Translations under genes and position numbers: made by a program
Virus record (IMG/VR): IMGVR_UViG_3300024359_000009
Coordinates: 1-64,000 of that record
From: a virus
Length of the DNA stretch: 64,000 bases
Strand: one strand, 5' to 3'
In this document: piece after piece, positions 3,317 to 34,749 of the stretch
Layout of the letters: each line of letters opens with the position of its first letter
How positions within the stretch are numbered: the first letter of the stretch is position 1
Notes under the pieces: model-generated
Databases searched by the model: none
Told to the model about the DNA's origin: nothing
The model's input: only the letters and a program-made list of their open reading frames with translations

Positions 3317-3647
3317 TAAAAAAATAAAGTTTGAATTAAACTTACTGATCAGAGAAGGAAGAGATAAGGATGAAACTGAATTAGGAATGCAAGTAGAAGG
3401 AAATGGTAATGATTTATCATTTGCTGTATTTTCAAATTGCCTAAGTCATTTCAAAAGAATGAAAGAAACTGGAGAAGATCCAGAAGGAGAAGTAGTTGTT
3501 GATATTTTTCAAACAATAGCAGAAGGATATATAGGAGGCTTAATAGCTTTTAAAGAATCTAATGATTATAAATCAGAGGCTATGGAAGAGATTGATAAAT
3601 TAATCGAAAAATTCGTCTCACTCCACACTGATACTTACAAAAAATAA
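3309..3647 (+). CDS. Small hypothetical protein
   Basis: A 112-residue acidic protein, unrecognised. The first 30 residues look like beta strands (KIKFELNLLIREG), followed by helices (SFAVFSNCLSHFKRMKE). It overlaps the YubB-like gene by 8 bases, consistent with coupled translation. No membrane segment or signal peptide. Confidence 0.65.
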   Translation: MADKKIKFELNLLIREGRDKDETELGMQVEGNGNDLSFAVFSNCLSHFKRMKETGEDPEGEVVVDIFQTIAEGYIGGLIAFKESNDYKSEAMEEIDKLIEKFVSLHTDTYKK

Positions 3648-6646: not shown

Positions 6647-7951
6647 ATGTCTGTAAATGCAATTAAGGATAAAGTACAAAGAGCAGCTTTAAACAAATGG
6701 TTTGTTAATGGCTGTAAAGGTACTCTTGAAATGGCTACAGGCGTTGGTAAATCAAGGTGTGGGGTTCTTGCTTCTCAGTATGTTGTAAAACATAAACCTG
6801 ATGCAAGAATATTAATAATTACCCCTACACAAACTATTAGAGATGACGCATGGGTAGGAGAATTTACTCAATGGGGAGCTTCTGAGTTGTTAAGTACAAA
6901 TGTTGAGATTCAATGCATACAAACAGTGTATAAATGGAAGAATGAGCATTTTGATTTAATAATAGCAGATGAGGTACATAATTACGTTCCAGACGTACAG
7001 AACAAGGATTTCCAATATTTTAAGTTCTTCCTGGAAAATAAATTTGATAAGATACTTGCATTAAGTGCAAGTATCGAATCAAGTCTTAAACCGAGATTAT
7101 GGACTATTGCTCCTATTGTTGAGACAATCTCGACTGCAGAGGCGTTAAGAATGGGGTTAATAGCTCCTTTTAAAGTATTCAATTTAGCTATTCCCCTTAC
7201 TAAACAAGAGCAAGGAGAGTATGATAAGGCAACGGAAGTGTTTGAAAAAACCTTTTCAATCTTTACAGATTCAAGAGGATTTAAAAACATTCAAGTATTG
7301 TTCAAGTGTCTAAACCCTGTCGCATTTAAAACATTCCTTCAAAAAGAAGGATATAGTGCGAAAGATTTTAGAGACATGAGAGCTTGGCCTCAGTTATGTA
7401 TGAATGCTATGAAAACAAGAAAAGATATTATCTACAATGCAGAGAATAAAATCCAAGCTGTTGTAGAAATACTTGAAAAGTTTTCAGATAGAAGAGGTAT
7501 AGTGTTTTCACAGTCTATTGACTTTGCAAACTCGGTATCGCAAGAATTAGGTCCAAAAATAGCAACTACTTTTCATTCTAAACTTACTAAAAAGGTTAAG
7601 AAACAAATGTTAGATGACTTTAACGATCTAAAAACTTCTACAAGGGCTATTATATCAGCCTCAGCGTTAAATGAAGGTGCTAACCTTAATGATGTATCAC
7701 TTGCTATAATTGCATCTGGTACATCCAAAGAAAAAGACTTTATCCAACGTCTTGGTAGAGCTGTCAGATTGAAAGAAGGTAAAGAAGCATATATGATTCG
7801 TCTGTATGTAGAAGGTACTAAAGAGCAATCTTGGTTAGCTAAAAGTCAGGAGAATTTTCCTGGCTGTTTTATTAATAATATTTCTGAAATTAACAACGAA
7901 ATTTACAATCAAAAGAGTAAAGAAGTAACAAAAAATACTTATGTTTGGTGA
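6647..7951 (+). CDS. SF2 DNA/RNA helicase
   Basis: A 434-residue superfamily 2 helicase with both RecA-like domains. Visible motifs: Walker A ATGVGKS (residues 30-36), Ia ITPTQT (58-63), DEVH box (108-111), motif III SAS, motif V SASALNEGANL, and motif VI QRLGRAVR (367-374). The combination resembles the UvrB/XPB-like phage helicases found next to DNA polymerase in crAss-like phages. The protein is compact, without extra accessory domains, so it may be a fork-remodelling or recombination helicase rather than the replicative one, which is the DnaB-like protein at 8595. It ends with TGA. Confidence 0.9.
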   Translation: MSVNAIKDKVQRAALNKWFVNGCKGTLEMATGVGKSRCGVLASQYVVKHKPDARILIITPTQTIRDDAWVGEFTQWGASELLSTNVEIQCIQTVYKWKNEHFDLIIADEVHNYVPDVQNKDFQYFKFFLENKFDKILALSASIESSLKPRLWTIAPIVETISTAEALRMGLIAPFKVFNLAIPLTKQEQGEYDKATEVFEKTFSIFTDSRGFKNIQVLFKCLNPVAFKTFLQKEGYSAKDFRDMRAWPQLCMNAMKTRKDIIYNAENKIQAVVEILEKFSDRRGIVFSQSIDFANSVSQELGPKIATTFHSKLTKKVKKQMLDDFNDLKTSTRAIISASALNEGANLNDVSLAIIASGTSKEKDFIQRLGRAVRLKEGKEAYMIRLYVEGTKEQSWLAKSQENFPGCFINNISEINNEIYNQKSKEVTKNTYVW

Positions 7952-21433: not shown

Positions 21434-24400
21434 TTATTTTGAACAACTAAGTCCTAATTCACCATCATCTATTTTTTTATTTACAATATCACCTTCTGAT
21501 TTAGGCATTATTATATTTATACCTCCTGGTTCACTCATACTATTCAGAGAAACATCTGAGCTACCAGAATATTGCTCAAAATCTATACCTGGAAGTTCTT
21601 GTTCTGGATTATACTCATCTTCAAACAAAGAATCATCTGCTGTTTCTTTTGATTTTTTAGGAGTAGTTTTTTTAGGTTCTACTACTTTAAAATCATTGTT
21701 ATCTGGATGTATAGAATCTGGATTCTCTTTAGTAGGATATACTTCAAAGAATTTGTGCTCTTCCCCTAATGGAGATATAACTTGATACTCAGCATATCCT
21801 TTTATAGCATCTACTATTTGAGATTGTCTCTTATATAATCTCCATTTTTTATTTTCCGTATCCCACATTTTAATGTAGTAAGGGAATCCAGCTGGAGATT
21901 TTAGTTCTGCTTTTACAAGATCACCACTTTTTCTTTGTATGTTAAATAAATTAGCAGCATTGTCTGATGAAACCCCAAAAGTATGTGGGAATTTTTTCTT
22001 ACCAGTTATACTTTCAGCCTCTTTAGTTACATCTAATTTATTAGCTCGTAACGAAACTGATTTTAATAGTTTATCTGCTTCAAATCTATTACGTATAATT
22101 TGGTCAACCATATTATATTGTCCTGATATATCACCTAAAGCATCATCATTTTTTGTATCTACAGCGTATGCAGTAAGGTGTTCATTAGCGACATTTTCAA
22201 AAGCTTCTAATTGATCTGCAATATATTTAGAAAGACTTCCTAATGATTGTCCATCTTCATTTAAAGTTAAATCTTTCCATAGTCTTACTGGAAATAAATC
22301 GATAAATGTATTAGGTCCATTTTGGAAACCTGATGTTACAATTCCATACTGAATAATTCTACGCATATTTAAAGAAAGAGCATCTACAGCTTTTTGCTTT
22401 TCTACAGCTGACAAAGTATTGAATTTAGGATAACTTGATTTTAATACTTTTTCAGGGTAGTAAACAAGCTCTTCAAATGCATCTACAAAAGATGATTTAG
22501 TCTCACCACTGTAAGAAGCAGTATTATTAAATTTCAACATTTGTAGTGAATTTCTTGAGTTGAAATTATCCGAACTAACCATACTTAAAAAAGTATTGTT
22601 TTGTAGATTGTATTTCTTTTTAAGAATATCAATTTGTTTTGCTGTTGAACGCTTAATATCAAATAGTTTTCTTTTTATAACATCTTGATCAGAGTCACTC
22701 ATCATGTATTTTTGTACAGGTGAGTCTTTACCAAACATAACGTATGAGAATATATCCGAATTAATTTTGTTCAATAAGTCTTTATCTCCAATGTATCCAT
22801 CTTTTTGATGTGTACTGTAAGCAATACTGTCTTTGATAATAGAAAATACCTTAGAATTGTAAGGCATAAATTCAGAGATTATATTTTCAGCACCAAGTAT
22901 AGCTTCATCGTAATACGCTTTAATCCTTGGAACAGCTGCATCCTCTGTATAGAGATTGTTAACCGTTATCGCACCTCTTCCTTCTTCTACATAAGTTTTA
23001 TTATTTTTCCAGATTTCTATATCTACAAGACCACTCATTTGTGTGAATCTATCTGGAGACATCATTTTATTAGTTTTTGCTAAATCTGTACCTGCTTTAT
23101 GATACTGTACAAAATCTAATAATACTTGTTTTTGGTACATCAACTCATCTTCAGACATTTCATCTAAAGATTTTGTAGCTTTTAGAACTGCTTTTAAATT
23201 TTCTGGAGTTATTGTAACTCTGTTGTTTTCAGCAGCGTCATAAGAAAGTTCTTTCCCTGTTCTACCTACTTTAGGTAAATCAAATCTTTCTGCTACTTCT
23301 GCTGCTAAAGTAGTAATGTAAGCCCCATCAGTTGATAAATTATTAGCATTAGTTAATTCTCTGATTATTGGTTGATTAATCAAATCTACAGCAATATCAT
23401 TATTATAACCAAGTCTGTTTAAATAAGCTACTACGTTTGCAGTAAATGTATTTATATTCAAAGAACCAGTAATAGGATCTTTAGCATTATCTAACGATGC
23501 ATTTTGATTCTCATTTGTATAAATAGAACGAAGGACTCCATCAAATCCATATATTCCTGATAAATCATTTGCTTGATTATCTTTAGTACCTATTTCCTTA
23601 CCATCTTGGTCCACTGTTTTAATGTAAACTGGAGTAGATGTTGCAATAGAAACGTCTTGCGCTATCGCTTGTCCTACAGAGTGTGATGAGAAAATACCTA
23701 CCAATGCTTTAGCATCTTTGTTTACCATCTCTAAGTGCATGTCTGTATAACCAGATGAGAAATTAAATGTACTTGTTTTCTCAAGTAAGTTGTAATCACC
23801 ATACTCCTCCATCTTATTAGGATAAGTAGCTGAATCTAAAGGATTTACAACCTCTTTATTATTGTGTTTAGAAGTTAATATACCAAATCTTGTAGCAAAT
23901 AAAATGTTTTCTATTTGTTTATCAGATAATGCATCAGCACTTTTTGTACCTTCTACCATTTTTTTCAAAGAGTTTTGAAACGGTACTTTTTGAATCCCCT
24001 GTTTTAAATTTAAAGAATCAAAAATATCTGATAAATATTTCTCAGTACTAACTATTTTATCTTTAGAAACATTATTTACTACTTTATCAATGTTTTCTTT
24101 CCAACTTTCTAATCCTTCTACAGAGTCTCCTCTTTCTTTCGCTCTTTTTATAAAAGTATTTTTATTAGTAGTAATTACTTTATCAAAATCACTTTGAAAG
24201 TCTTTAAGAAACATCATATCTGAAACCATTAAAGTGCTTCCGTCTTTTTTAGCCTGTTTTTTAGCTTGTCCCCAAACCTTTTTCATAGCTTTTTCAAACA
24301 AAGCTTCATTTTTAGGATCTTCTTTTCTCCATTTGTTTAAAGAAACACTTGATCTTTTACCTTCTGGTAATCCTAATAACTCTGCTACTTTTGGTTTAAA

Positions 24401-27400
24401 GTCTGTATCAAAATCTAAAACATCTTGTCTATTTTTTCTTAAAGTAGATTTTCCTAATCCTGGATGTCCCCAAATTATAGAATGTTTTTTATTTTGTAAA
24501 GCAGGATAATACAAAAACATCTTATCGACATCATAATCTGAACCAGTTTGCGTCACAATCTCATGTGGCAACATAATCTGACCTTTAGATGTTGGAGGTA
24601 ATATTCTTTTTACTATTAAAGGTAACATAGATGATTTACCTTGTGTAGGGATACGGTATCCAATAATTTCTAACACAGATTTATCAGGCATTTTATCATG
24701 GTCTATAATACCGTTTTCATCAGCATATTCCAAAATACCTAATTTCTCTGCTTCTTTATAGGAGATGGCGCACTCAGCAGCTTTCATATCTCCGTTCTCA
24801 AACGAATAATACTTCAACCTGTTTTCAGTATCATCACCGTACTCAGCTACTTGTACTGCGGCATCTCCTGGTAATCTTTGAGTAAGAACTCTTGATTTAT
24901 ATAAAGAAGCTAATGCGATTTCAAATTTCTTAGCGTAAGCTGGGAAAGATAAAGGCATTGCAAAAGAATAATCTCCTGATTCTAATTGCTGTATTTCTAA
25001 AGCGATACTGTAATTATCTGGTAAATCTCTTGACTCAATTTGTTCTATAAGTAATTTTTGAACCTTTTTCAAAAACTCTAATTGGTTTTCTCTTGAGTTA
25101 CTTTTACCATTCGCTAAGTATTTATCGTACCCTAAGTCCTCTCTAAGTTTTTTAGAAGCACGTTTGATTTTCTCTACATATACAGAGTTGGAAACAGACT
25201 TTATTTGTTCTGTTGTCATAGCTTCCATTCCTTCTACTGTATTGTACACAGCACCTGGATCCATATTAGAAGTAATCAATTTAACAAATTGAGAACCGTC
25301 TTTTGGATCAGTACCTTTATCAGTTGGTAAAATAAATGGACTTCTTTCATTCTCTGAATAGATAGTCTGAAGAGTCATGTTAGATAAATAAGATCCATCT
25401 TGAGAATAAGTATTTACACCTGACTTACCTACTTTTACAGCAGACTCCATATTCACTACATCTATAGGATCCATGTTAGAAAATTCACCAGTAGCTTCCA
25501 TTCTTTGACGTAATTTATCTAAAGATGGAACTTGCTTAGTCATACCAGCGTATAAAGGAACAGTAGAGTGTTTAATTTGTTTAAACGACACTCTTTGTAA
25601 TGCTACATCGTATTGTTTTCCCCAGTAAAAAGTTTTTAATGGTTTTAGTGCAAGTTTATTTACCCAGTCTGGCCAAGAAGATACTGGAACTTCTTTTTTC
25701 CAATACTCATTATATGCTTTTTCGTGAGAGTGTTCTCCTTCCATAGTCCAATCACCTCTACTCATCATTGAATGACGGTGAGCTTCAAGAGTTGTGTATC
25801 CTTGTGCATCAGCAGAATTACTTCCTTTACGATACATTCTAACTATTTTGATAGCATCTTTCTTCTCTGTAGATAGAGAAGAAGTAGATTTTTTCATTCC
25901 ATCTTCTGTAAGGTATGGTTTTGCCCAATTAGACTCACCAACTAAATTTTCAGCGATATTAACTGCAGAATCTACAGACATAGAAGTTTCTATATCTTTC
26001 ATAATAGCCATGGACATCTGCTTAGGTTTTCCGTACATTGAGTCTATTACATGATCGATACCTGGGGTAATAGTTTGGTAAGAACGTTTACCAGCATCTG
26101 TTACAACTGATAAGAACTCACCTTTAACACCATTGAACTCAGCATCATTTGATATATCTGCAGTTTTTGTTTTATACAGAGCTAAATCCCCCATTTGGAA
26201 TTTGTTTATTTCTGTTCTCCAAACAAGTTCGTTCATTAAAAATTCAGAAACTTGGTCATCTATCTTGTTTACTTGCTCACCATCTATAGTTACAGAAGTA
26301 CCTCCAAAAGAATCTACCTTTACCATATCGGTATAGTAAATACCGTCTTTTTCAAATAAGACACCAGCTTTAACCATTCTATTTTTACCACGTAGAACTT
26401 CTCTATCTAAAAACGCATCTAAGGCTTTGTTAACTTTTGCGTAGTTTGTTTCTGTAGAGATTTCTTTTAAGCTTCCATCTGTGTTAAACAATCCGTAAGT
26501 AGAGAAGTTTAAATCAGGTATAGACATAAATTTCAATCCATTAGCAGCTTTTCTATTTAAAGTACCATCTGGATTAGTTCCTTTATAATGTAGATTTTCT
26601 ACTAACTGGTCATCTCTTAAAGCTTCTGGACCGAACAATTGTTCCTGAGTAAGTCTAATACGAGCAGCTTCTTGCATTACATTTCTTTTCAAGACATGTT
26701 TTGCAGCTTCTTTTACATATTTTACTCCAATACCATTACTAATACTCATCTCAGCAGGTGCTTTAGCATTTTGTAATGTAGGAACTTTCATGTATAAAGA
26801 CCTTCCTTTATCTGCTTTCGTACCCATACTTATATAAGAGTAACCTGTACTTTTTCTGTTACCATTGTTTGCAAACATAGCCATACGTGTTAACCATGCT
26901 TGTTTTTCTATCATTTGGTCAAAAGAAGTACCTTTTCCTTTTTCTTTATCCTTAGCAGTATCAAGTTCGATTATATCAAACTCTTCTCTCATCTTAGGAT
27001 TATTTTTTAATAACTCAAAAAATAGAGAACCATGTACTCCTAAATTACCATCTGGATTGTAGAATACATCTTTAGAATATGAGTCTTCCCACATCTTTTC
27101 GATATTTTCTACTGTAGAAACATCTTGTTTAAATTTAGAAATATAAGAGTTTAAGTTTATAGAATAAACCATTTTACCCTCACCATTTACAAATGAACCA
27201 GTGTATAAATCCGTAGATACATCTTTAACTAATTCAGCTATTTTAGTAATTGTTTTTAACTGACCTTTATTCTGAGTAGAAACGTATGGATCAACTCCTT
27301 TTCCAGATTTTATTTTTTTAGTTTTTACATCATACCCAAGTTCATTCATAATAAATTTGAATTTCCCTTGTACATAAGACTTATTAAAATCTTTTGGAGA

Positions 27401-30400
27401 ATATTTAGTAGCAAGCATTTGAAGTACAGGAGCGTCAAACTCTATACCTATGAAAGAAAACACTTCATTAATTGCTTTGTAATAATCTACTGGATTTTCT
27501 TGAAGCTTTTCATTACTCAATGTCTCATAAGAATCAGCCATTTTTTGAAGCACTTCTTTATTAACAGTAGCTGTTTGACCTTGCTCTTCAACAAATAAAT
27601 TCTTAGCGTTTTTATTACGAGCCCATCCTTCTAATATCTGTTTTAAAACACCAGTACGATTTGTTTCAATAAGTTTCCACTCCATGTTTTCACCTGAAAC
27701 AACTGTCATAAACTTTAACTGTGTTTTAGACATTACAGCTTTAAACTTATTTTTAAGTTCTGGAGACCAGTTTTGATACTCTGTATATACAGAGGAAATC
27801 ATTGGGTTCCATGCTGATAACTCTTGTAATTTATCTTCCATCTCAGATATATCCACATCTGCTAACTTACTTGTAAGCATTGAATATACTTTATGAAAAT
27901 CAATAAAAGTAGGAAGCATTGTAAACTTACTTCTTCCATTTGAAATAGTTTTACCTGTTTTTTTGTCTACTATTGTAGGAGTAGGAACAAAACTTAAAGC
28001 TATTTTAACTTCTGATGCTAATGTTTTCTTAGGATCACTTAAAGCAAAGTGTGAATTATGTATTCTTTCAATAGATGTAGATTCGTTTTCACCTTCTTCA
28101 ACTACTTCTTCACCAAATTCAAGGACTTCATTTTCTACTTTCTTAGCATCGTATTCTGTAAATCCATCTGTTGTTTTTTGTCTTTTTACATTTGAACCGT
28201 GTAGTTTTAAACTATCGATTAATAAAGAACCAAACCCAGGATCTGAAACAATACCACCTTCAAATTTATCATTCCATTCAGAGTCTTGTAATGATTTTTC
28301 TAAATATCTACCTGATAATGTTTTATTAGCAGTAGGATTTTTAGAATTTAAAAATGTAGTACCTTGTTTTAATAAAATGTCTCTTGTTTCATTAATAGCA
28401 GTCCTAACATCTTCTACATACTTATTAGATGTAATCATCTCAGTAATAGAAGTAGCAGTTGTTCTACCATCTGCAATCATTTTAGGTATTACTTTTCTCA
28501 TCAATGCGTAACGCATTGTGCTTACCATATCATGTTTGAACTCTTCTGTGAATCCTTTTTTTCTTCTAAGTTTAAAATCATTTGGATTAAAATATTGCTT
28601 ATCCATGATTGATTTTGCTCTTTCTGAAAACGTTACGTTACCATTCTTAATGTTTAAGAATGCTTTATTCATAATAGAATTAGAAAGGTAAACTGAATCT
28701 CTGTTCAACATCTGAGAACCTTTTATACGCATCGCTAAAATTGCTTTTCTAATTCTATCAAAGAATTTTTGAATAGCAATTCCTACTTTAGTTTTCTTTA
28801 TTTTGCCTTTTGACTCTTCAGACTCCATAAAAGTTCTGAATGCTTCGGCCATTTCTTCTTCATAATAAACTTCAGCTAACTCAGCTTCATTTTTATTAGG
28901 ATATGTAGTTTTTAAATCTTGGTATTTTTGTGAGCGTTTATTTATTTCTCCAAATACTTTTTTAGCCGCTTTCATTAATACTTCTTTTTCTTTAGAAGTA
29001 GAAGCTAAATCAAGAACTAAGTGAAAAGCTTCGTGATAAGCAGTTCCTTTTTTACCATCTCTTGCTAAAAACACCATTCCATTTGAATAAGCACCGTATG
29101 CTTTTTCTCCTTTTATAAGAATAAATTTAGCTTGAGCCATTGGAGCTAAATGTTCTTCTCCGAATGTATCTATAATCCAGCTAATCTCTGTATCAGTTAA
29201 GATGTTCAAAGGATTTTCTTCAAATTTAGACTCAACTTTTCTAAAAACTAAGTCTTCATCATTCGGATCTATATCCTCTGTATTGATTGTTTCTGTACCA
29301 TCTAACTCTTTTTCTGGTTCTAACTCTTGTGTGTTATTATCAATTTCATTTTGAGTCGGATCTGAATCAATAACATTATCTGTTTCAGAAACTATTTCAA
29401 TATTAGCAGGTGTAGCTTCTCCATCTGTATTGCTTTCGTTTTTAACTGCATTATCTTGCTGTTCTAAAGCTGTTAATTCAGCATCGTATTTAGCGTTGAT
29501 TTTGTCTATTTCAGTATGTTCTTTTACATAGATCTTCTCATTTTTATAATCTCCTATTAAATATACAACATCATTAGTAAACACAGGCTTTGTAGTATTA
29601 CTATTAGTAGTACTTGCGTTATGCTTTAATCCTGCTGTTTTTAAATTAGCTCTGGGTACTACTGCAATATAAGGATCTCCACCTGCTTTTTCTGCAAAAT
29701 CCATTACCACATTAAAGCCTTTAGTTCCATTTCCAAAGTATATACTGCTATACTTAGGATTATTATTATATCCTTTTTGACTTAAAACACCAGTTTCAGC
29801 AGCATTTATAAATCCTTCTTTAGATAAACTTCTATAAGCTAATTGATCATTTATATAATTAGATTGATTTTCAGGTGTTAACTCTACTGAATTTTCTATA
29901 CTTAACAACTCTACCTGCCTTCTTCTTTTTATATCAGCTTTAGTTTTAGCTTTAGCTACATCCAAACTATCTATATCAGATGTTACTTCTACTGAAGGAG
30001 TAACAATTTGAATTTTTTTATTTACTGGAATTAATTGCGCCTTAGAATTTGTAAACTTTTGTCCTGTGCTTAATCCTGTAACATCGGTAGTAAGTATATT
30101 CTTACCTTCTAAGTATTCAGAGTATGAATTATATGTTTCTCCAGTAGTGTGGTCAATTGTAGCTGTGTTGCTAACAATATTCTTTTTACTGACATCATAA
30201 TTTTTACTCATTATAGCATCCTTAATAACTTGTCTGAAGTCTTGTAATGCTTCAAGCATCTCAGGAGTTAAAGTCTTAGGGCTTTTAGGATCGAAATATT
30301 CTTGCTTTGGTTTTCCGTCATCATTAAGTAATGGCTCACCATAGTTGTATTCTGGATTACCAGTTGATGATTGGTAAACAGTTGCTAAAAATCTTTCACC

Positions 30401-33400
30401 ATTTAAAGCTTGTCTTAAATTGTTAATTCCTTTATCTCCGAAATCATAAAATCCAATAGATAATATTTGACCACCTACTCTTAATTTTATCTCTCTATTG
30501 TTTGCAAAAAATAAAGGTCCATTAGCATTTTCAGAGTCTTCAATATTATGATTAGCTATTGTTCCTACAATACTTTTAATAATAGCTGCTTTATCATTAC
30601 CTTCTAATTCACTATTTAAAAGAATATTATCTATAATGTGATCTGCATCTTTTTCTGATACTTTTTTAGTTTCTAAACGTACAGGAACTTTATCACCATT
30701 AGCAGAAGTAACCATTGCGTAAACTCTACCATCTTCTACTTTTGCTTCATATTCTTTTTCAACGCCATTTTCCGTATAAATAACAGTACCATTACTACCA
30801 ACACCTAATGTAAAATCTTTTCCAAAAGCACCTAAAACTCCTATTGGATTTTTAGCAGATGAACCATCTGGTTGCTTTTGATTTATAACAAATCCTTTTC
30901 CTTTTTTATGTATCATAACTGGTACAGCTCCTGATTCATCTGAATAAACATCAAAGTTTGTCCTTAAATCGGATAACTCTTCTACGCTGTCAGCAGCAAT
31001 TTTTTGTACTGGAGGACCATCTGGAGTTAAATGAACTGTAATAGGTTGATTATGTTCACCTGCGTCTGGGAATATCTCTTGTCCAGCTTTTTCATGTCCT
31101 TGAGGATATACATATTGTCCTTTTTTAAGATAAACTACCTGGTCTTTTTTTGCATTTTCAGGTTTAACCCAGTCTTCAAACGCTAATACTTCGCTTTCTA
31201 ATACAGGAGTCTCGTTTAAATCTGCTGGAACTATATAAATAGGCTCACCTTTCATACCTTTTGTTAGCAAAGGAACTGGAGCAGATGATTTATCGTATCT
31301 AAACTTATCCATTCCAAACCCTTGCCTTATTATAGGCATACCAGTTGTCTCATCCAATTTAACTGGATACCAATATAAAGGAATAGCAACTGCTTTCTCA
31401 GCTTCTGTAAGATTGTCTTCTGTTTTTCTTACATACTTAGTAGCTAATTTTGGAATAGGATTACCATTTTCATCAGTAGCTTTTACAAAGAAACCTTTTT
31501 CACGAACACCCATCTCGATGTTATTAGAAGTAGGAGTCTCAGGATTATCTATCTGCAGAGATATAAATTGCGTATCAACTGTTGTTACAGCATCTACTGG
31601 CATTGCTTGTAACTGAGGTTGCATTTTAGCTTCAGCCTCTTCTTCAATATCTTCTTCTTCTGTAGTTTCAACCTCTGAATCAAGATCTAAAACAGGGGTG
31701 TTCTCTAAACCGTACTTAGCAGAATTATCACCTTCTTTTTCAGATAACTGAACGATACGAATATCTTTAGTATCTAACATTGCATCTGGATCAACTCCAG
31801 CTTCTTCTAATTCTTTATCTCTTTGTTCTAAAGCAGCTTCCTTATCTTTTAATGCTTGTTCAAAAGATTGTAGTTCTTGTACTCGTTCATTCAGTATCGC
31901 TGCTTCAGATGACTTTATATCATCTCCCAGTAAATCTAAGTTATCAGTGATTTCTTTTACTGTATTAGCCTCTTCTAAAAGCATTTTAGTACCATCAGAT
32001 AATTCTGCTTTTCTTTCTGGAGATAAATTTTCTAATGTTTTATTAGGAACTTTTTCCCCCAAATCTTCTGCAGTAGCAGTAGGCTCTGTTTCTTGTACAG
32101 TTATTTTACCATCTTCACTCAGACTTACTGTTGGAACACCTAATATTTCATTTAAACTCTGTTGTCCTTCAGAAGGAGCATTTTGAGTAGGAGCTTCTTC
32201 TTTTTCATTTGTTGGAGCTTCTACTTTTTTACCTGGTTGTTTTTTAGCAGCCTCAGCAACTTTTTTAGCAGCTTTAGGTGTTAATCCTAATTCTTGTTTT
32301 AACGACTCTGCCTGTGTATCTATATGCTGTAATACTTCAGTTTGAGCTTGTTTTCTTTTATTGTCTAAAGCAATAGTTTCGTTTTTAGAAACCTTTTCTA
32401 AAAAGTCATATAAAACATCTAAACGAGAATTTTTCTCAGGATGATTTGATTTCTGTACAGAGTTAATTAATGATTGAATACCATCACGAGTTAAACCATT
32501 ATCGATTATTTCATCTTGTATTCTTTCTCTAAACGCATCTTCCCTACGTCTTTCAAATCTATTTTTACGAATATCATCTGCTTTATTTTTAGCAGCCCTT
32601 TTACCTTCAGATTTTTTAACCATCTGAATATACTCTGAATCTAATTCATTTTGTATTTTAGAATTTTCATCAGCTTCTTTTTCATTATCTCTTTTTAACT
32701 TTAAAGCAAAGGCAAAGGCATCATTTTCTAATGCTAATTCTTCATCTGACATAGATGCATACGAAGGAGATAACCCAGAACGTATTTCGTTCATAGCTTT
32801 TTCAACTTCTTGTATGTTTTCTTTTGCTTCTTTTGTGTATTTTTTATAATTCAAAGCAGTAGCCCTATTAACTACTGCACTACTTTGTAGTTTAGGAGAA
32901 GCAAAACTAAATTTATTATAAGCATCTTCTGTTTCTTCTATAAACTCAATAGCACTTTCAGCTCTTTCTTTATAGTTAGAAGGCATACCTCTTTCATCAA
33001 TAGCTTCTTTCTCAGGAATACTTGCCATGTGTTTATACGCTGCAAGTAAAGACTCAGTAGTACCGTCTTGCAAACTGTTTTTAACCTGACTCCATAACAT
33101 ATTATCAGCAGCTGCACTTACTTTTGCTTGCGCTTGTTCTATTTTCTTTGTGTCTCCCTCTGCTTCTGCTTTTTCCAGTTCTTTTTCGGCTGCTTTTTGA
33201 GCTTCAGCTTTTGTTTTGAAATCCGCTGCAGAAAGAAAAACACTTGATAATGTTCCATTTTTAGCACTGCTTTTCTTTGCCATATTATCAATCTCAGCAA
33301 TACGTGCTTCTTGTTTTTCAAACTGTTCTAATTCTTGTTTGTACTTACCAGACGCTTTTCTGTACGCCATACCACCAGCTCCTTGACCAATACCACCAAT

Positions 33401-34675
33401 AGCCCCAAGCGTACCAGCTTCCCAGAAACTTGCATCATCAGCATATTTAGCCATAGAATTACCGTCAGCTAACGCTGATAAAAGATTATCCTTACCTCCT
33501 CCAGCAATCGCTTTTTTACCTTCTCCTTCAGCTATAAAGTTTATTTGTTCTTCTCCAAATTCTTGTACACCCTCAGCACCTAATGTTCTTAGTCCTGCTT
33601 TTGAAAATAATTTTTTAGGGGCCTCAAGTAAAGTTCTTGATGCTAATGTTTGAGCACCAGCACGAGTAAACATACTTGCACCAGTTAAATTCAAAGCAAT
33701 ATTTGCTCTGTTAATGGCAATTATATTAGAAGCGTCATCAGCAGCTTTGGCTTTAGCTTCTTCTTCAGTAGCACCTAAAGAAATATAATGATCTAAATTT
33801 TCTTTGTAAACTGTTGAAGCTGACATTACTGCTTCTGTTTGATTCAGAGCTGTAGCTGTAGCTAATGTGGATGTTCCTTTAGCTAATTTTTGTACCCACT
33901 TAGCTGCGTTAGCTGTTAATCCAGCAGCACCAGCACCAAACGTAGCACCTACTACAGCACCTTGCGCTGCAAAAGCTCCTATTGAAGCAACTAAAGAAGA
34001 ACCGTTTTCAAACCACCATGCTGGATCTCCAATATCAAAAGCCTCTCCTGGCTTTTCTCTGTAAATAGCAAAAGAGTCATTCATTGCATTTTTATACTCT
34101 TCCATTTTATCTGAAATAGGATTACCTACTTCATCATCTTGATTGTAGTAATCTTCTATATCAACCATAGAAGCCATACCACCTACAAAATCAAATATAG
34201 CACCACCCACAGCTCTAACAACCGCATTACCAGCTTGCTCAACTCCACTTTGTCCTTGAGCTCTACGTAAATCTAACTCTTGAGTACCAACCCAAGGTTT
34301 AACTTGGTCCATATAATCAGAGTAAGCATCTACATCTATGTCATATACTTTATTTGCGTTTAATCTCGCACCAGCACCTTCTTCGTATTTTCCTGGATTC
34401 TTTTTATAATCTTCAAGCTGTGCTCCTCTAAGAGGTAGACCTGTTGAAGGATCTAAAACAGTTTCATTTAAAGCCTCAGAAATAGTTTTTTTCTTTTCTT
34501 TTTCACGCTTTGCTGGTCCAGGACCAGGATTAGCAGGAACACTTTTTTGAAATTGTTCTTCTTGTTGTTTACGAAGTCTTTCTAATTCTTGTTCTGAATA
34601 AGCTACACCAGTAGCAGGATTGATTGCGCCAGCCCCATAGCCACCGTCTGTATTGAACATTATATTTTCTTCCAT
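21434..34675 (-). CDS. Giant multidomain virion RNA polymerase protein (crAss-like, phi14:2 gp66 type)
   Basis: About 4,413 residues from the ATG at 34675; the frame opens at 34708 (4,424 residues; numbering below uses that longer frame), but a -7-like box lies at 34706-34713 and the leader fits the later start. Domains in order: N-terminus with an Ala/Gly-rich hydrophobic stretch (about 235-285), coiled-coil and low-complexity regions to about 1000, a zincin peptidase site HEAFH (1892-1896) with downstream EMAEAF, then a large region ending in the RNA polymerase beta' double-psi barrel: YRIPTQGKSSMLPLI and DYDVD (3391-3395), matching the DxDxD that binds catalytic magnesium. A P-loop kinase-like insert follows. 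It should be packaged in the virion and transcribe early genes after injection, as in phi14:2. Confidence 0.85.
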   Translation of the reverse strand: MEENIMFNTDGGYGAGAINPATGVAYSEQELERLRKQQEEQFQKSVPANPGPGPAKREKEKKKTISEALNETVLDPSTGLPLRGAQLEDYKKNPGKYEEGAGARLNANKVYDIDVDAYSDYMDQVKPWVGTQELDLRRAQGQSGVEQAGNAVVRAVGGAIFDFVGGMASMVDIEDYYNQDDEVGNPISDKMEEYKNAMNDSFAIYREKPGEAFDIGDPAWWFENGSSLVASIGAFAAQGAVVGATFGAGAAGLTANAAKWVQKLAKGTSTLATATALNQTEAVMSASTVYKENLDHYISLGATEEEAKAKAADDASNIIAINRANIALNLTGASMFTRAGAQTLASRTLLEAPKKLFSKAGLRTLGAEGVQEFGEEQINFIAEGEGKKAIAGGGKDNLLSALADGNSMAKYADDASFWEAGTLGAIGGIGQGAGGMAYRKASGKYKQELEQFEKQEARIAEIDNMAKKSSAKNGTLSSVFLSAADFKTKAEAQKAAEKELEKAEAEGDTKKIEQAQAKVSAAADNMLWSQVKNSLQDGTTESLLAAYKHMASIPEKEAIDERGMPSNYKERAESAIEFIEETEDAYNKFSFASPKLQSSAVVNRATALNYKKYTKEAKENIQEVEKAMNEIRSGLSPSYASMSDEELALENDAFAFALKLKRDNEKEADENSKIQNELDSEYIQMVKKSEGKRAAKNKADDIRKNRFERRREDAFRERIQDEIIDNGLTRDGIQSLINSVQKSNHPEKNSRLDVLYDFLEKVSKNETIALDNKRKQAQTEVLQHIDTQAESLKQELGLTPKAAKKVAEAAKKQPGKKVEAPTNEKEEAPTQNAPSEGQQSLNEILGVPTVSLSEDGKITVQETEPTATAEDLGEKVPNKTLENLSPERKAELSDGTKMLLEEANTVKEITDNLDLLGDDIKSSEAAILNERVQELQSFEQALKDKEAALEQRDKELEEAGVDPDAMLDTKDIRIVQLSEKEGDNSAKYGLENTPVLDLDSEVETTEEEDIEEEAEAKMQPQLQAMPVDAVTTVDTQFISLQIDNPETPTSNNIEMGVREKGFFVKATDENGNPIPKLATKYVRKTEDNLTEAEKAVAIPLYWYPVKLDETTGMPIIRQGFGMDKFRYDKSSAPVPLLTKGMKGEPIYIVPADLNETPVLESEVLAFEDWVKPENAKKDQVVYLKKGQYVYPQGHEKAGQEIFPDAGEHNQPITVHLTPDGPPVQKIAADSVEELSDLRTNFDVYSDESGAVPVMIHKKGKGFVINQKQPDGSSAKNPIGVLGAFGKDFTLGVGSNGTVIYTENGVEKEYEAKVEDGRVYAMVTSANGDKVPVRLETKKVSEKDADHIIDNILLNSELEGNDKAAIIKSIVGTIANHNIEDSENANGPLFFANNREIKLRVGGQILSIGFYDFGDKGINNLRQALNGERFLATVYQSSTGNPEYNYGEPLLNDDGKPKQEYFDPKSPKTLTPEMLEALQDFRQVIKDAIMSKNYDVSKKNIVSNTATIDHTTGETYNSYSEYLEGKNILTTDVTGLSTGQKFTNSKAQLIPVNKKIQIVTPSVEVTSDIDSLDVAKAKTKADIKRRRQVELLSIENSVELTPENQSNYINDQLAYRSLSKEGFINAAETGVLSQKGYNNNPKYSSIYFGNGTKGFNVVMDFAEKAGGDPYIAVVPRANLKTAGLKHNASTTNSNTTKPVFTNDVVYLIGDYKNEKIYVKEHTEIDKINAKYDAELTALEQQDNAVKNESNTDGEATPANIEIVSETDNVIDSDPTQNEIDNNTQELEPEKELDGTETINTEDIDPNDEDLVFRKVESKFEENPLNILTDTEISWIIDTFGEEHLAPMAQAKFILIKGEKAYGAYSNGMVFLARDGKKGTAYHEAFHLVLDLASTSKEKEVLMKAAKKVFGEINKRSQKYQDLKTTYPNKNEAELAEVYYEEEMAEAFRTFMESEESKGKIKKTKVGIAIQKFFDRIRKAILAMRIKGSQMLNRDSVYLSNSIMNKAFLNIKNGNVTFSERAKSIMDKQYFNPNDFKLRRKKGFTEEFKHDMVSTMRYALMRKVIPKMIADGRTTATSITEMITSNKYVEDVRTAINETRDILLKQGTTFLNSKNPTANKTLSGRYLEKSLQDSEWNDKFEGGIVSDPGFGSLLIDSLKLHGSNVKRQKTTDGFTEYDAKKVENEVLEFGEEVVEEGENESTSIERIHNSHFALSDPKKTLASEVKIALSFVPTPTIVDKKTGKTISNGRSKFTMLPTFIDFHKVYSMLTSKLADVDISEMEDKLQELSAWNPMISSVYTEYQNWSPELKNKFKAVMSKTQLKFMTVVSGENMEWKLIETNRTGVLKQILEGWARNKNAKNLFVEEQGQTATVNKEVLQKMADSYETLSNEKLQENPVDYYKAINEVFSFIGIEFDAPVLQMLATKYSPKDFNKSYVQGKFKFIMNELGYDVKTKKIKSGKGVDPYVSTQNKGQLKTITKIAELVKDVSTDLYTGSFVNGEGKMVYSINLNSYISKFKQDVSTVENIEKMWEDSYSKDVFYNPDGNLGVHGSLFFELLKNNPKMREEFDIIELDTAKDKEKGKGTSFDQMIEKQAWLTRMAMFANNGNRKSTGYSYISMGTKADKGRSLYMKVPTLQNAKAPAEMSISNGIGVKYVKEAAKHVLKRNVMQEAARIRLTQEQLFGPEALRDDQLVENLHYKGTNPDGTLNRKAANGLKFMSIPDLNFSTYGLFNTDGSLKEISTETNYAKVNKALDAFLDREVLRGKNRMVKAGVLFEKDGIYYTDMVKVDSFGGTSVTIDGEQVNKIDDQVSEFLMNELVWRTEINKFQMGDLALYKTKTADISNDAEFNGVKGEFLSVVTDAGKRSYQTITPGIDHVIDSMYGKPKQMSMAIMKDIETSMSVDSAVNIAENLVGESNWAKPYLTEDGMKKSTSSLSTEKKDAIKIVRMYRKGSNSADAQGYTTLEAHRHSMMSRGDWTMEGEHSHEKAYNEYWKKEVPVSSWPDWVNKLALKPLKTFYWGKQYDVALQRVSFKQIKHSTVPLYAGMTKQVPSLDKLRQRMEATGEFSNMDPIDVVNMESAVKVGKSGVNTYSQDGSYLSNMTLQTIYSENERSPFILPTDKGTDPKDGSQFVKLITSNMDPGAVYNTVEGMEAMTTEQIKSVSNSVYVEKIKRASKKLREDLGYDKYLANGKSNSRENQLEFLKKVQKLLIEQIESRDLPDNYSIALEIQQLESGDYSFAMPLSFPAYAKKFEIALASLYKSRVLTQRLPGDAAVQVAEYGDDTENRLKYYSFENGDMKAAECAISYKEAEKLGILEYADENGIIDHDKMPDKSVLEIIGYRIPTQGKSSMLPLIVKRILPPTSKGQIMLPHEIVTQTGSDYDVDKMFLYYPALQNKKHSIIWGHPGLGKSTLRKNRQDVLDFDTDFKPKVAELLGLPEGKRSSVSLNKWRKEDPKNEALFEKAMKKVWGQAKKQAKKDGSTLMVSDMMFLKDFQSDFDKVITTNKNTFIKRAKERGDSVEGLESWKENIDKVVNNVSKDKIVSTEKYLSDIFDSLNLKQGIQKVPFQNSLKKMVEGTKSADALSDKQIENILFATRFGILTSKHNNKEVVNPLDSATYPNKMEEYGDYNLLEKTSTFNFSSGYTDMHLEMVNKDAKALVGIFSSHSVGQAIAQDVSIATSTPVYIKTVDQDGKEIGTKDNQANDLSGIYGFDGVLRSIYTNENQNASLDNAKDPITGSLNINTFTANVVAYLNRLGYNNDIAVDLINQPIIRELTNANNLSTDGAYITTLAAEVAERFDLPKVGRTGKELSYDAAENNRVTITPENLKAVLKATKSLDEMSEDELMYQKQVLLDFVQYHKAGTDLAKTNKMMSPDRFTQMSGLVDIEIWKNNKTYVEEGRGAITVNNLYTEDAAVPRIKAYYDEAILGAENIISEFMPYNSKVFSIIKDSIAYSTHQKDGYIGDKDLLNKINSDIFSYVMFGKDSPVQKYMMSDSDQDVIKRKLFDIKRSTAKQIDILKKKYNLQNNTFLSMVSSDNFNSRNSLQMLKFNNTASYSGETKSSFVDAFEELVYYPEKVLKSSYPKFNTLSAVEKQKAVDALSLNMRRIIQYGIVTSGFQNGPNTFIDLFPVRLWKDLTLNEDGQSLGSLSKYIADQLEAFENVANEHLTAYAVDTKNDDALGDISGQYNMVDQIIRNRFEADKLLKSVSLRANKLDVTKEAESITGKKKFPHTFGVSSDNAANLFNIQRKSGDLVKAELKSPAGFPYYIKMWDTENKKWRLYKRQSQIVDAIKGYAEYQVISPLGEEHKFFEVYPTKENPDSIHPDNNDFKVVEPKKTTPKKSKETADDSLFEDEYNPEQELPGIDFEQYSGSSDVSLNSMSEPGGINIIMPKSEGDIVNKKIDDGELGLSCSK
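24000..24496 (-). other. P-loop kinase-like insertion in the RNA polymerase protein
   Basis: Domain of the giant protein, about residues 3405-3570. It begins 10 residues after the last catalytic Asp and reads IIWGHPGLGKST (Walker A at 3414-3421), LDFDTDF (3431-3437, a kinase-type acidic strand), and STLMVSD (3491-3497, Walker-B-like strand). After it the polymerase sequence resumes with the GKALVGIF-type segment (DAKALVGIFSSHS). It lacks intein splice residues. The predicted fold is a nucleotide or polynucleotide kinase-like P-loop enzyme. Confidence 0.6.
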
Positions 34676-34685
34676 GATAATACTT

Positions 34686-34749
34686 TTTACTAAAAACAGG
34701 TAGATCAAAAATACAAAATATCCTTTAATCTATAACTGTTTTTAGTAAA
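34686..34749. repeat. Perfect 14-bp inverted repeat flanking candidate promoter
   Basis: Arms TTTACTAAAAACAG (34686-34699) and CTGTTTTTAGTAAA (34736-34749) are exact reverse complements separated by 36 bases. The candidate -7 box of the giant polymerase gene sits in the spacer. The arrangement looks like paired operator half-sites or a long-range stem; the loop is too long for a terminator. Confidence 0.55.
34706..34713 (-). promoter_or_regulatory. Candidate promoter -7 element for giant polymerase gene
   Basis: On the - strand this reads TATTTTTG, matching TAnnTTTG of Bacteroidota promoters, about 30 bases before the ATG at 34675 and inside the inverted repeat spacer. No TTTG at the usual -33 distance was found, so it is a partial match. 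Confidence 0.35.

What the first reader, a model, noticed from the sequence alone, without database searches (positions are those of the whole stretch)
24000..24540. P-loop kinase-like domain inserted right behind the RNA polymerase active site
The giant late protein contains the double-psi barrel signature (YRIPTQGKSSMLP..., DYDVD) that holds catalytic magnesium in RNA polymerases. Only ten residues after the last aspartate of the barrel motif a separate P-loop domain starts (GHPGLGKST, then LDFDTDF), about 165 residues long, after which polymerase-type sequence resumes. In beta' subunits this position is near the catalytic loop. A kinase or nucleotide-binding module in that place could prepare the RNA 5' end, act on nucleotides, or act as a regulator. 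I know the DxDxD motif from phi14:2 gp66; I do not know of this insertion being described.
Basis: partly seen in the sequence, partly recalled or inferred. Interest (0 to 1): 0.78.

Follow-up and report, generated by a model that had tools for sequence, protein, structure and literature searches.

The report
Roaming kinase domain inside phage RNA polymerase
A crAss-like phage carries a small kinase-like domain spliced into a tolerant loop right behind the catalytic centre of its virion-type RNA polymerase; relatives keep the same domain elsewhere in their giant proteins and put other enzymes into the same loop, so the polymerase seems to double as a carrier for swappable enzyme modules.

Summary
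Residues ~3409-3567 of a 4424-aa minus-strand ORF (window 24008-24481) form an independent P-loop kinase-fold domain (AlphaFold pLDDT 91.8), starting about 14 residues after the catalytic DYDVD of a crAss-like two-barrel RNA polymerase (profile hit to phi14:2 gp66, PDB 6VR4, E 5e-131). It is a true insertion: the nearest polymerase relative (L049, 67% identical in the barrel) has an uninterrupted 'PALEETGENTFQKVP' where the window has PALQ-[~165 aa]-GIQKVP, and its 81-kb record lacks the domain. Phages with barrels only 30-46% identical carry it at 45-59% identity elsewhere: upstream or downstream in the polymerase ORF, or in neighbouring or opposite-strand giant genes. The same polymerase loop holds a different P-loop kinase (PNK-like, AAA_33) plus DUF7831 in L070, and a NADAR domain in L105 (its relative L119 lacks the insert). 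Kinase and NADAR copies share flanking linkers. Best reading: a new family of 'polyvalent'-type effector kinase that landed in a permissive loop behind the active site and is probably delivered into the host with the polymerase. A role on the RNA 5' end or catalytic loop is not supported; substrate and activity are unknown.

The parts
21434..34708 (-). 4424-aa ORF: giant protein holding the two-barrel RNA polymerase in its C-terminal part
   Evidence: open in frame throughout
22769..25891 (-). polymerase core (residues 2940-3980), homologous to phi14:2 gp66
   Evidence: profile A4 vs 6VR4_A E 5.2e-131; AlphaFold model pLDDT 80.2; Foldseek 6vr4_A E 1.8e-26, TMq 0.63, only significant PDB hit
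24629..24658 (-). YRIPTQGKSS motif of DPBB-A (residues 3351-3360)
   Evidence: Y, R, P and one S invariant across 10 relatives
24524..24538 (-). DYDVD catalytic metal-binding motif (residues 3391-3395)
   Evidence: the three D invariant in the 10 aligned relatives
24008..24481 (-). inserted P-loop kinase-fold domain (residues ~3409-3567)
   Evidence: alignment A2 of 19 homologues; pLDDT 91.8; phrog_4182 E 5.9e-9
24443..24469 (-). Walker A GHPGLGKST (residues 3414-3422)
   Evidence: H, P, G, K of GHPxxGK invariant in A2
24398..24418 (-). LDFDTDF, DxD at end of strand 2 (residues 3431-3437)
   Evidence: both D (3432, 3434) invariant in A2
24215..24226 (-). VSDM at end of strand 3 (residues 3495-3498)
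   Evidence: S invariant; SDM in one subfamily, SPH in the other
24125..24154 (-). FIKRAKERGD, LID-like arginines R3522 and R3526
   Evidence: second R invariant, first at least 90%
23922..23998 (-). polymerase sequence resumes (GIQKVPF..., from residue 3571), aligned with TFQKVPV of the empty site in L049

Best explanation
The segment is a mobile effector-type P-loop kinase domain, of a family seen here only inside giant crAss-like-type phage proteins, that has inserted into a permissive loop directly after the catalytic DxDxD strand of the phage's virion-type two-barrel RNA polymerase. Shown: an independent kinase fold with an intact Walker A, DxD and LID arginines; a clean insertion against an empty relative; wandering of the family between sites and genes; occupation of the same loop by unrelated domains in other phages; shared linkers around kinase and NADAR cassettes. 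Inferred: the polymerase still works with the insert; the whole chain is packaged and injected, as orthologues are; the kinase then phosphorylates a small host or defence molecule (or an RNA end) as an early counter-defence or host-takeover function, with the polymerase serving as delivery vehicle.
For: Empty site: L049, 67% identical in the barrel, lacks the domain at the site and in its 81-kb record. Roaming: in 15 IMG/VR records where both kinase and barrel were found besides the window's phage (two with weak barrel matches), the kinase lies far from the barrel in the same ORF, in another giant ORF, or on the opposite strand; in cr124_1, cr55_1 and cr1_1 it is in the next gene. Kinase identity 45-59% against barrel identity 30-46% in such phages; the window's copy groups with seven of them (99/96 support). 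Site re-use: L070 AAA_33 E 2.9e-16 plus DUF7831 E 1.4e-27; L105 NADAR E 1.1e-14, with L119 (61.6% identical barrel) lacking the ~378-aa insert. Shared linkers 'NPELANxVYEALGF' / 'QQKQQALQLYS' flank the kinase in L034/L036/L045 and are in the L105 insert. Polyvalent context: ART-PolyVal (E 5.9e-10) next to the kinase in cr55_1. Low GC of the insert, 27.8% against ORF mean 32.6%, sd 3.1. RNAP subunits are virion cargo in crAss001 (PMC10172136).
Against: No marker domain of polyvalent proteins passes threshold in the window's own ORF. Packaging and injection are inferred from orthologues. Kinase activity is untested; sequence search finds no named kinase family and the structural matches are distant (TM 0.4-0.58). 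The joint model has low confidence over the insert, so the geometry to the active site is unknown. That two of the three recognisable occupants of the loop are P-loop kinases leaves room for a site-specific role.
Confidence: 0.74

Rival explanations
1. The kinase works in cis with the polymerase: it modifies the nascent RNA 5' end, supplies or senses nucleotides, or gates the active site.
For: Primary-sequence proximity to DxDxD. A second, unrelated P-loop kinase of PNK type sits at the same site in L070 (PDB sequence hits include T4 PNK and Pnkp).
Against: The same family sits elsewhere, even in opposite-strand genes; the loop also takes NADAR; most relatives have only short or non-homologous segments there, down to ~30 aa.
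Confidence: 0.13
2. The insertion is neutral cargo or a decaying passenger with no present function.
For: It roams and has low GC.
Against: All invariant residues of the family are intact and the frame is open.
Confidence: 0.08
3. It is an intron, intein or homing-type selfish element removed before the polymerase acts.
For: An intron-like element with an endonuclease splits exactly the DFD/VD codons in a relative (L006).
Against: Continuous frame, kinase fold instead of a nuclease or Hint fold, no Rfam intron in the window.
Confidence: 0.03
4. The insert inactivates this polymerase, or the gene is a chimera of assembly.
For: The insertion lies next to an active site.
Against: Same junctions in other contigs at 99.98-100% identity; motifs intact; one barrel match only in the 51-kb sister record.
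Confidence: 0.02

Closest known systems
phi14:2 gp66 virion RNA polymerase (PDB 6VR4), Crassvirales
   Same: Same two-barrel polymerase core, DxDxD, alignment through both flanks of the insert (E 5e-131; Foldseek E 1.8e-26)
   Different: gp66 has a non-homologous segment of roughly 100 aa at this place and no P-loop
Polyvalent proteins (Iyer et al. 2017, PMC5512222)
   Same: Giant multidomain phage proteins with swappable effector domains, likely packaged; the kinase sits beside ART-PolyVal in cr55_1; that paper notes fusion of an ART to N4-like RNAPs and zeta-like kinases in such proteins
   Different: There domains are strung along the chain; here one is inside the polymerase core. I did not find this P-loop family in the passages of that paper that I searched
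phrog_4182 (unknown function)
   Same: Matches 12 of 19 domain copies, best E 5.9e-9
   Different: No function assigned
P-loop small-molecule and nucleotide kinases (adenylate, CMP, dephospho-CoA, shikimate kinases; zeta toxin and PNK in viruses)
   Same: Fold, Walker A, DxD, LID arginines
   Different: Only distant structural match; no sequence match to a named family
Lineage-specific insertions in cellular RNAP (BEAN/HABAS, PMC11515920) and in DPBB-A of two-barrel RNAPs (PMC10770324)
   Same: Domains inserted into the polymerase core; convergent insertion sites are described
   Different: A term search of the BEAN/HABAS text finds no enzyme, kinase or phage insert; the P23-45 paper mentions DPBB-A insertions without naming such modules in the passages read

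Membership tests
crAss-like two-barrel virion RNA polymerase (gp66 type) | DxDxD in a DPBB with YRxPT motif | tested here: met
crAss-like two-barrel virion RNA polymerase (gp66 type) | homology to gp66 across the core | tested here: met
   6VR4 E 5e-131, Foldseek E 1.8e-26
crAss-like two-barrel virion RNA polymerase (gp66 type) | packaged in the virion and active | not testable with these tools
   known for orthologues only (PMC10172136, PMC7886860; gp66 seen by MS per its record)
P-loop kinase | Walker A and kinase-type alpha/beta fold with LID arginines | tested here: met
P-loop kinase | phosphotransfer activity and known substrate | not testable with these tools
   needs an assay
T4 polynucleotide kinase (AAA_33) | sequence match to AAA_33/PNK | tested here: not met
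   window domain has no match; best of 19 members E 0.064; L070's domain is AAA_33
Polyvalent protein effector domain | family occurs in giant multidomain phage proteins with marker domains such as ART-PolyVal | tested here: met
   for the family: cr55_1 ART-PolyVal E 5.9e-10
Polyvalent protein effector domain | marker domains in the window's own protein | tested here: inconclusive
   no Pfam hit above threshold; a HEAFH motif near residue 1890 seen by eye only
Intein or homing element | Hint or homing nuclease domain, or an Rfam intron | tested here: not met

The most novel reading that the evidence does not exclude
The loop directly behind the catalytic aspartates of crAss-like virion polymerases is a recurrent landing site for exchangeable counter-defence enzymes (a new kinase family, PNK-like kinase plus DUF7831, NADAR), so the injected polymerase is itself an effector-delivery scaffold.
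Probability: 0.5. Interest if true: 0.75.

Novelty: new variant of a known kind. Interest (0 to 1): 0.62.

Why it matters
RNA polymerase cores are highly constrained, yet here an enzyme-type domain sits a few residues from the catalytic aspartates and the same spot accepts unrelated enzymes in other phages. If the kinase is active, these polymerases deliver host-targeting enzymes as part of the same chain that starts phage transcription. It also gives a defined, uncharacterised kinase family to test, and a natural site for asking what a two-barrel polymerase tolerates next to its active centre.

Tried and rejected
PDB sequence search of the kinase alone gave nothing meaningful, nor did its profile. 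Pfam, NCBIfam and PADLOC do not name the domain. Intron: Rfam finds none in the window. Junction repeats: only short imperfect repeats, no target-site duplication that I would trust. A joint AlphaFold model of core plus kinase did not resolve the insert (low confidence over it, since that alignment holds no other kinase), so I make no geometric claim. Single-sequence scans with the flanking polymerase found only the same phage; the profile scan was needed.

Full report
Observation. The finding lies on the minus strand inside ORF 21434-34708 (4424 aa). The barrel motif YRIPTQGKSS (3351-3360) and DYDVD (3391-3395) are followed by PALQ, then GHPGLGKST (3414-3422), LDFDTDF (3431-3437), VSDM (3495-3498) and FIKRAKERGD (3519-3528), and polymerase sequence resumes at GIQKVPF (3571). 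The same junctions are present in other IMG/VR contigs at 99.98-100% DNA identity, one of which covers only the N-terminal junction. I did not test whether these are independent samples.

The host protein is a crAss-like polymerase. A profile of 43 polymerase cores with the window first finds phi14:2 gp66 (6VR4) at E 5e-131, through both sides of the insertion. The predicted core matches 6VR4 alone with significance (E 1.8e-26).

The insert is an independent domain. With 19 homologues it folds at pLDDT 91.8, pTM 0.85. Foldseek gives adenylate, CMP, dephospho-CoA and shikimate kinases at E 3e-4 to a few e-3 with modest TM-scores, and the homologous domain of cr124_1 at E 2.9e-12 and TMq 0.81. 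The DxD at the end of strand 2 and paired arginines suggest a kinase that uses an aspartate to activate an acceptor, as in shikimate, zeta-type or polynucleotide kinases; that is inference from my knowledge of those families. No named family matches by sequence; phrog_4182, function unknown, does.

It is an insertion. L049, the nearest polymerase (67% in the barrel), reads DKLNLFYPALEETGENTFQKVPV where the window reads DKMFLYYPALQ-[kinase]-GIQKVPF, and its 81-kb record has no copy of the domain. Other relatives carry non-homologous segments of very different length there.

The domain roams. In IMG/VR carriers it lies in giant ORFs at many positions relative to the barrel: upstream in the same ORF (G001, G005, G006, G007), downstream in the same ORF (G003, G011), in neighbouring giant ORFs (G004, G008, G009, G010, G012), or on the other strand (G013, G014). 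In named phages cr124_1, cr55_1 and cr1_1 it is near the start of the gene after the polymerase gene. Its identity to the window's copy (45-59%) is above or about equal to that of the barrels (30-46%), and clearly above in the closest eight, and the window's copy groups inside a supported clade of copies at other sites. Only the window's phage, among those seen, has it at the barrel.

The loop is re-used. In L070 the same position holds an AAA_33 (PNK-like) kinase and DUF7831; in L105 a NADAR domain in a ~378-aa insert that L119 lacks. Among 84 non-redundant polymerase loci these two plus the window's phage are the only ones with a recognised enzyme-type domain there (one further weak FANCI_S1-cap match, E 2.9e-4, was not followed), so occupation by recognisable enzymes is uncommon in this sample. 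L070 has no close empty relative in the set, so its insertion is inferred from position. Linker sequences around kinase copies in L034, L036 and L045 recur in the L105 insert, as expected if modules are swapped by recombination in shared linkers.

Mechanism. Most likely the polymerase carries the kinase as passenger enzyme into the host. crAss001 packages its polymerase subunits as cargo (PMC10172136), and polyvalent proteins string such effectors together (PMC5512222); the kinase family does sit beside ART-PolyVal. Its substrate is open. A cis role in transcription is possible but is not needed to explain the position, since the loop tolerates unrelated domains and the kinase is found elsewhere.

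Novelty. Insertions in DPBB-A are known in general (PMC10770324), and convergent insertion domains in cellular polymerases too (PMC11515920). I found no report, in the open library searched, of this kinase family or of effector-type enzymes in this loop; the gp66 structure paper itself was not available to read.

Noticed in passing
L006 (bajarodcaudo virus 1, PQ006092.1) about 6957-7875: The polymerase gene is split by an intron-like element with an endonuclease ORF exactly between GSDFD and VDKMY, i.e. inside the catalytic triad codons; Rfam finds no known intron there.
   Followed up: partly
L034, L036, L045, L105: Recurring linkers NPELANxVYEALGF and QQKQQALQLYS flank different effector domains in giant proteins of different phages; they look like recombination joints.
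   Followed up: partly
L070 6193-8046: PNK-like kinase plus DUF7831 inserted behind the DxDxD of another crAss-like polymerase.
   Followed up: partly
L105 6157-7500: NADAR domain (also PADLOC PDC-M42C, E 4.9e-15) inserted behind the DxDxD.
   Followed up: partly
window 21434-34708, residues ~1890: TAYHEAFHLVLD, a HExxH zincin-like motif in the same giant protein; seen by eye only.
   Followed up: no
records of L036 and L040 (G010, G014): Polymerase-bearing open frames of 5879 and 6558 aa.
   Followed up: no
record of L028 (G002): Two copies of the kinase domain in one record.
   Followed up: no
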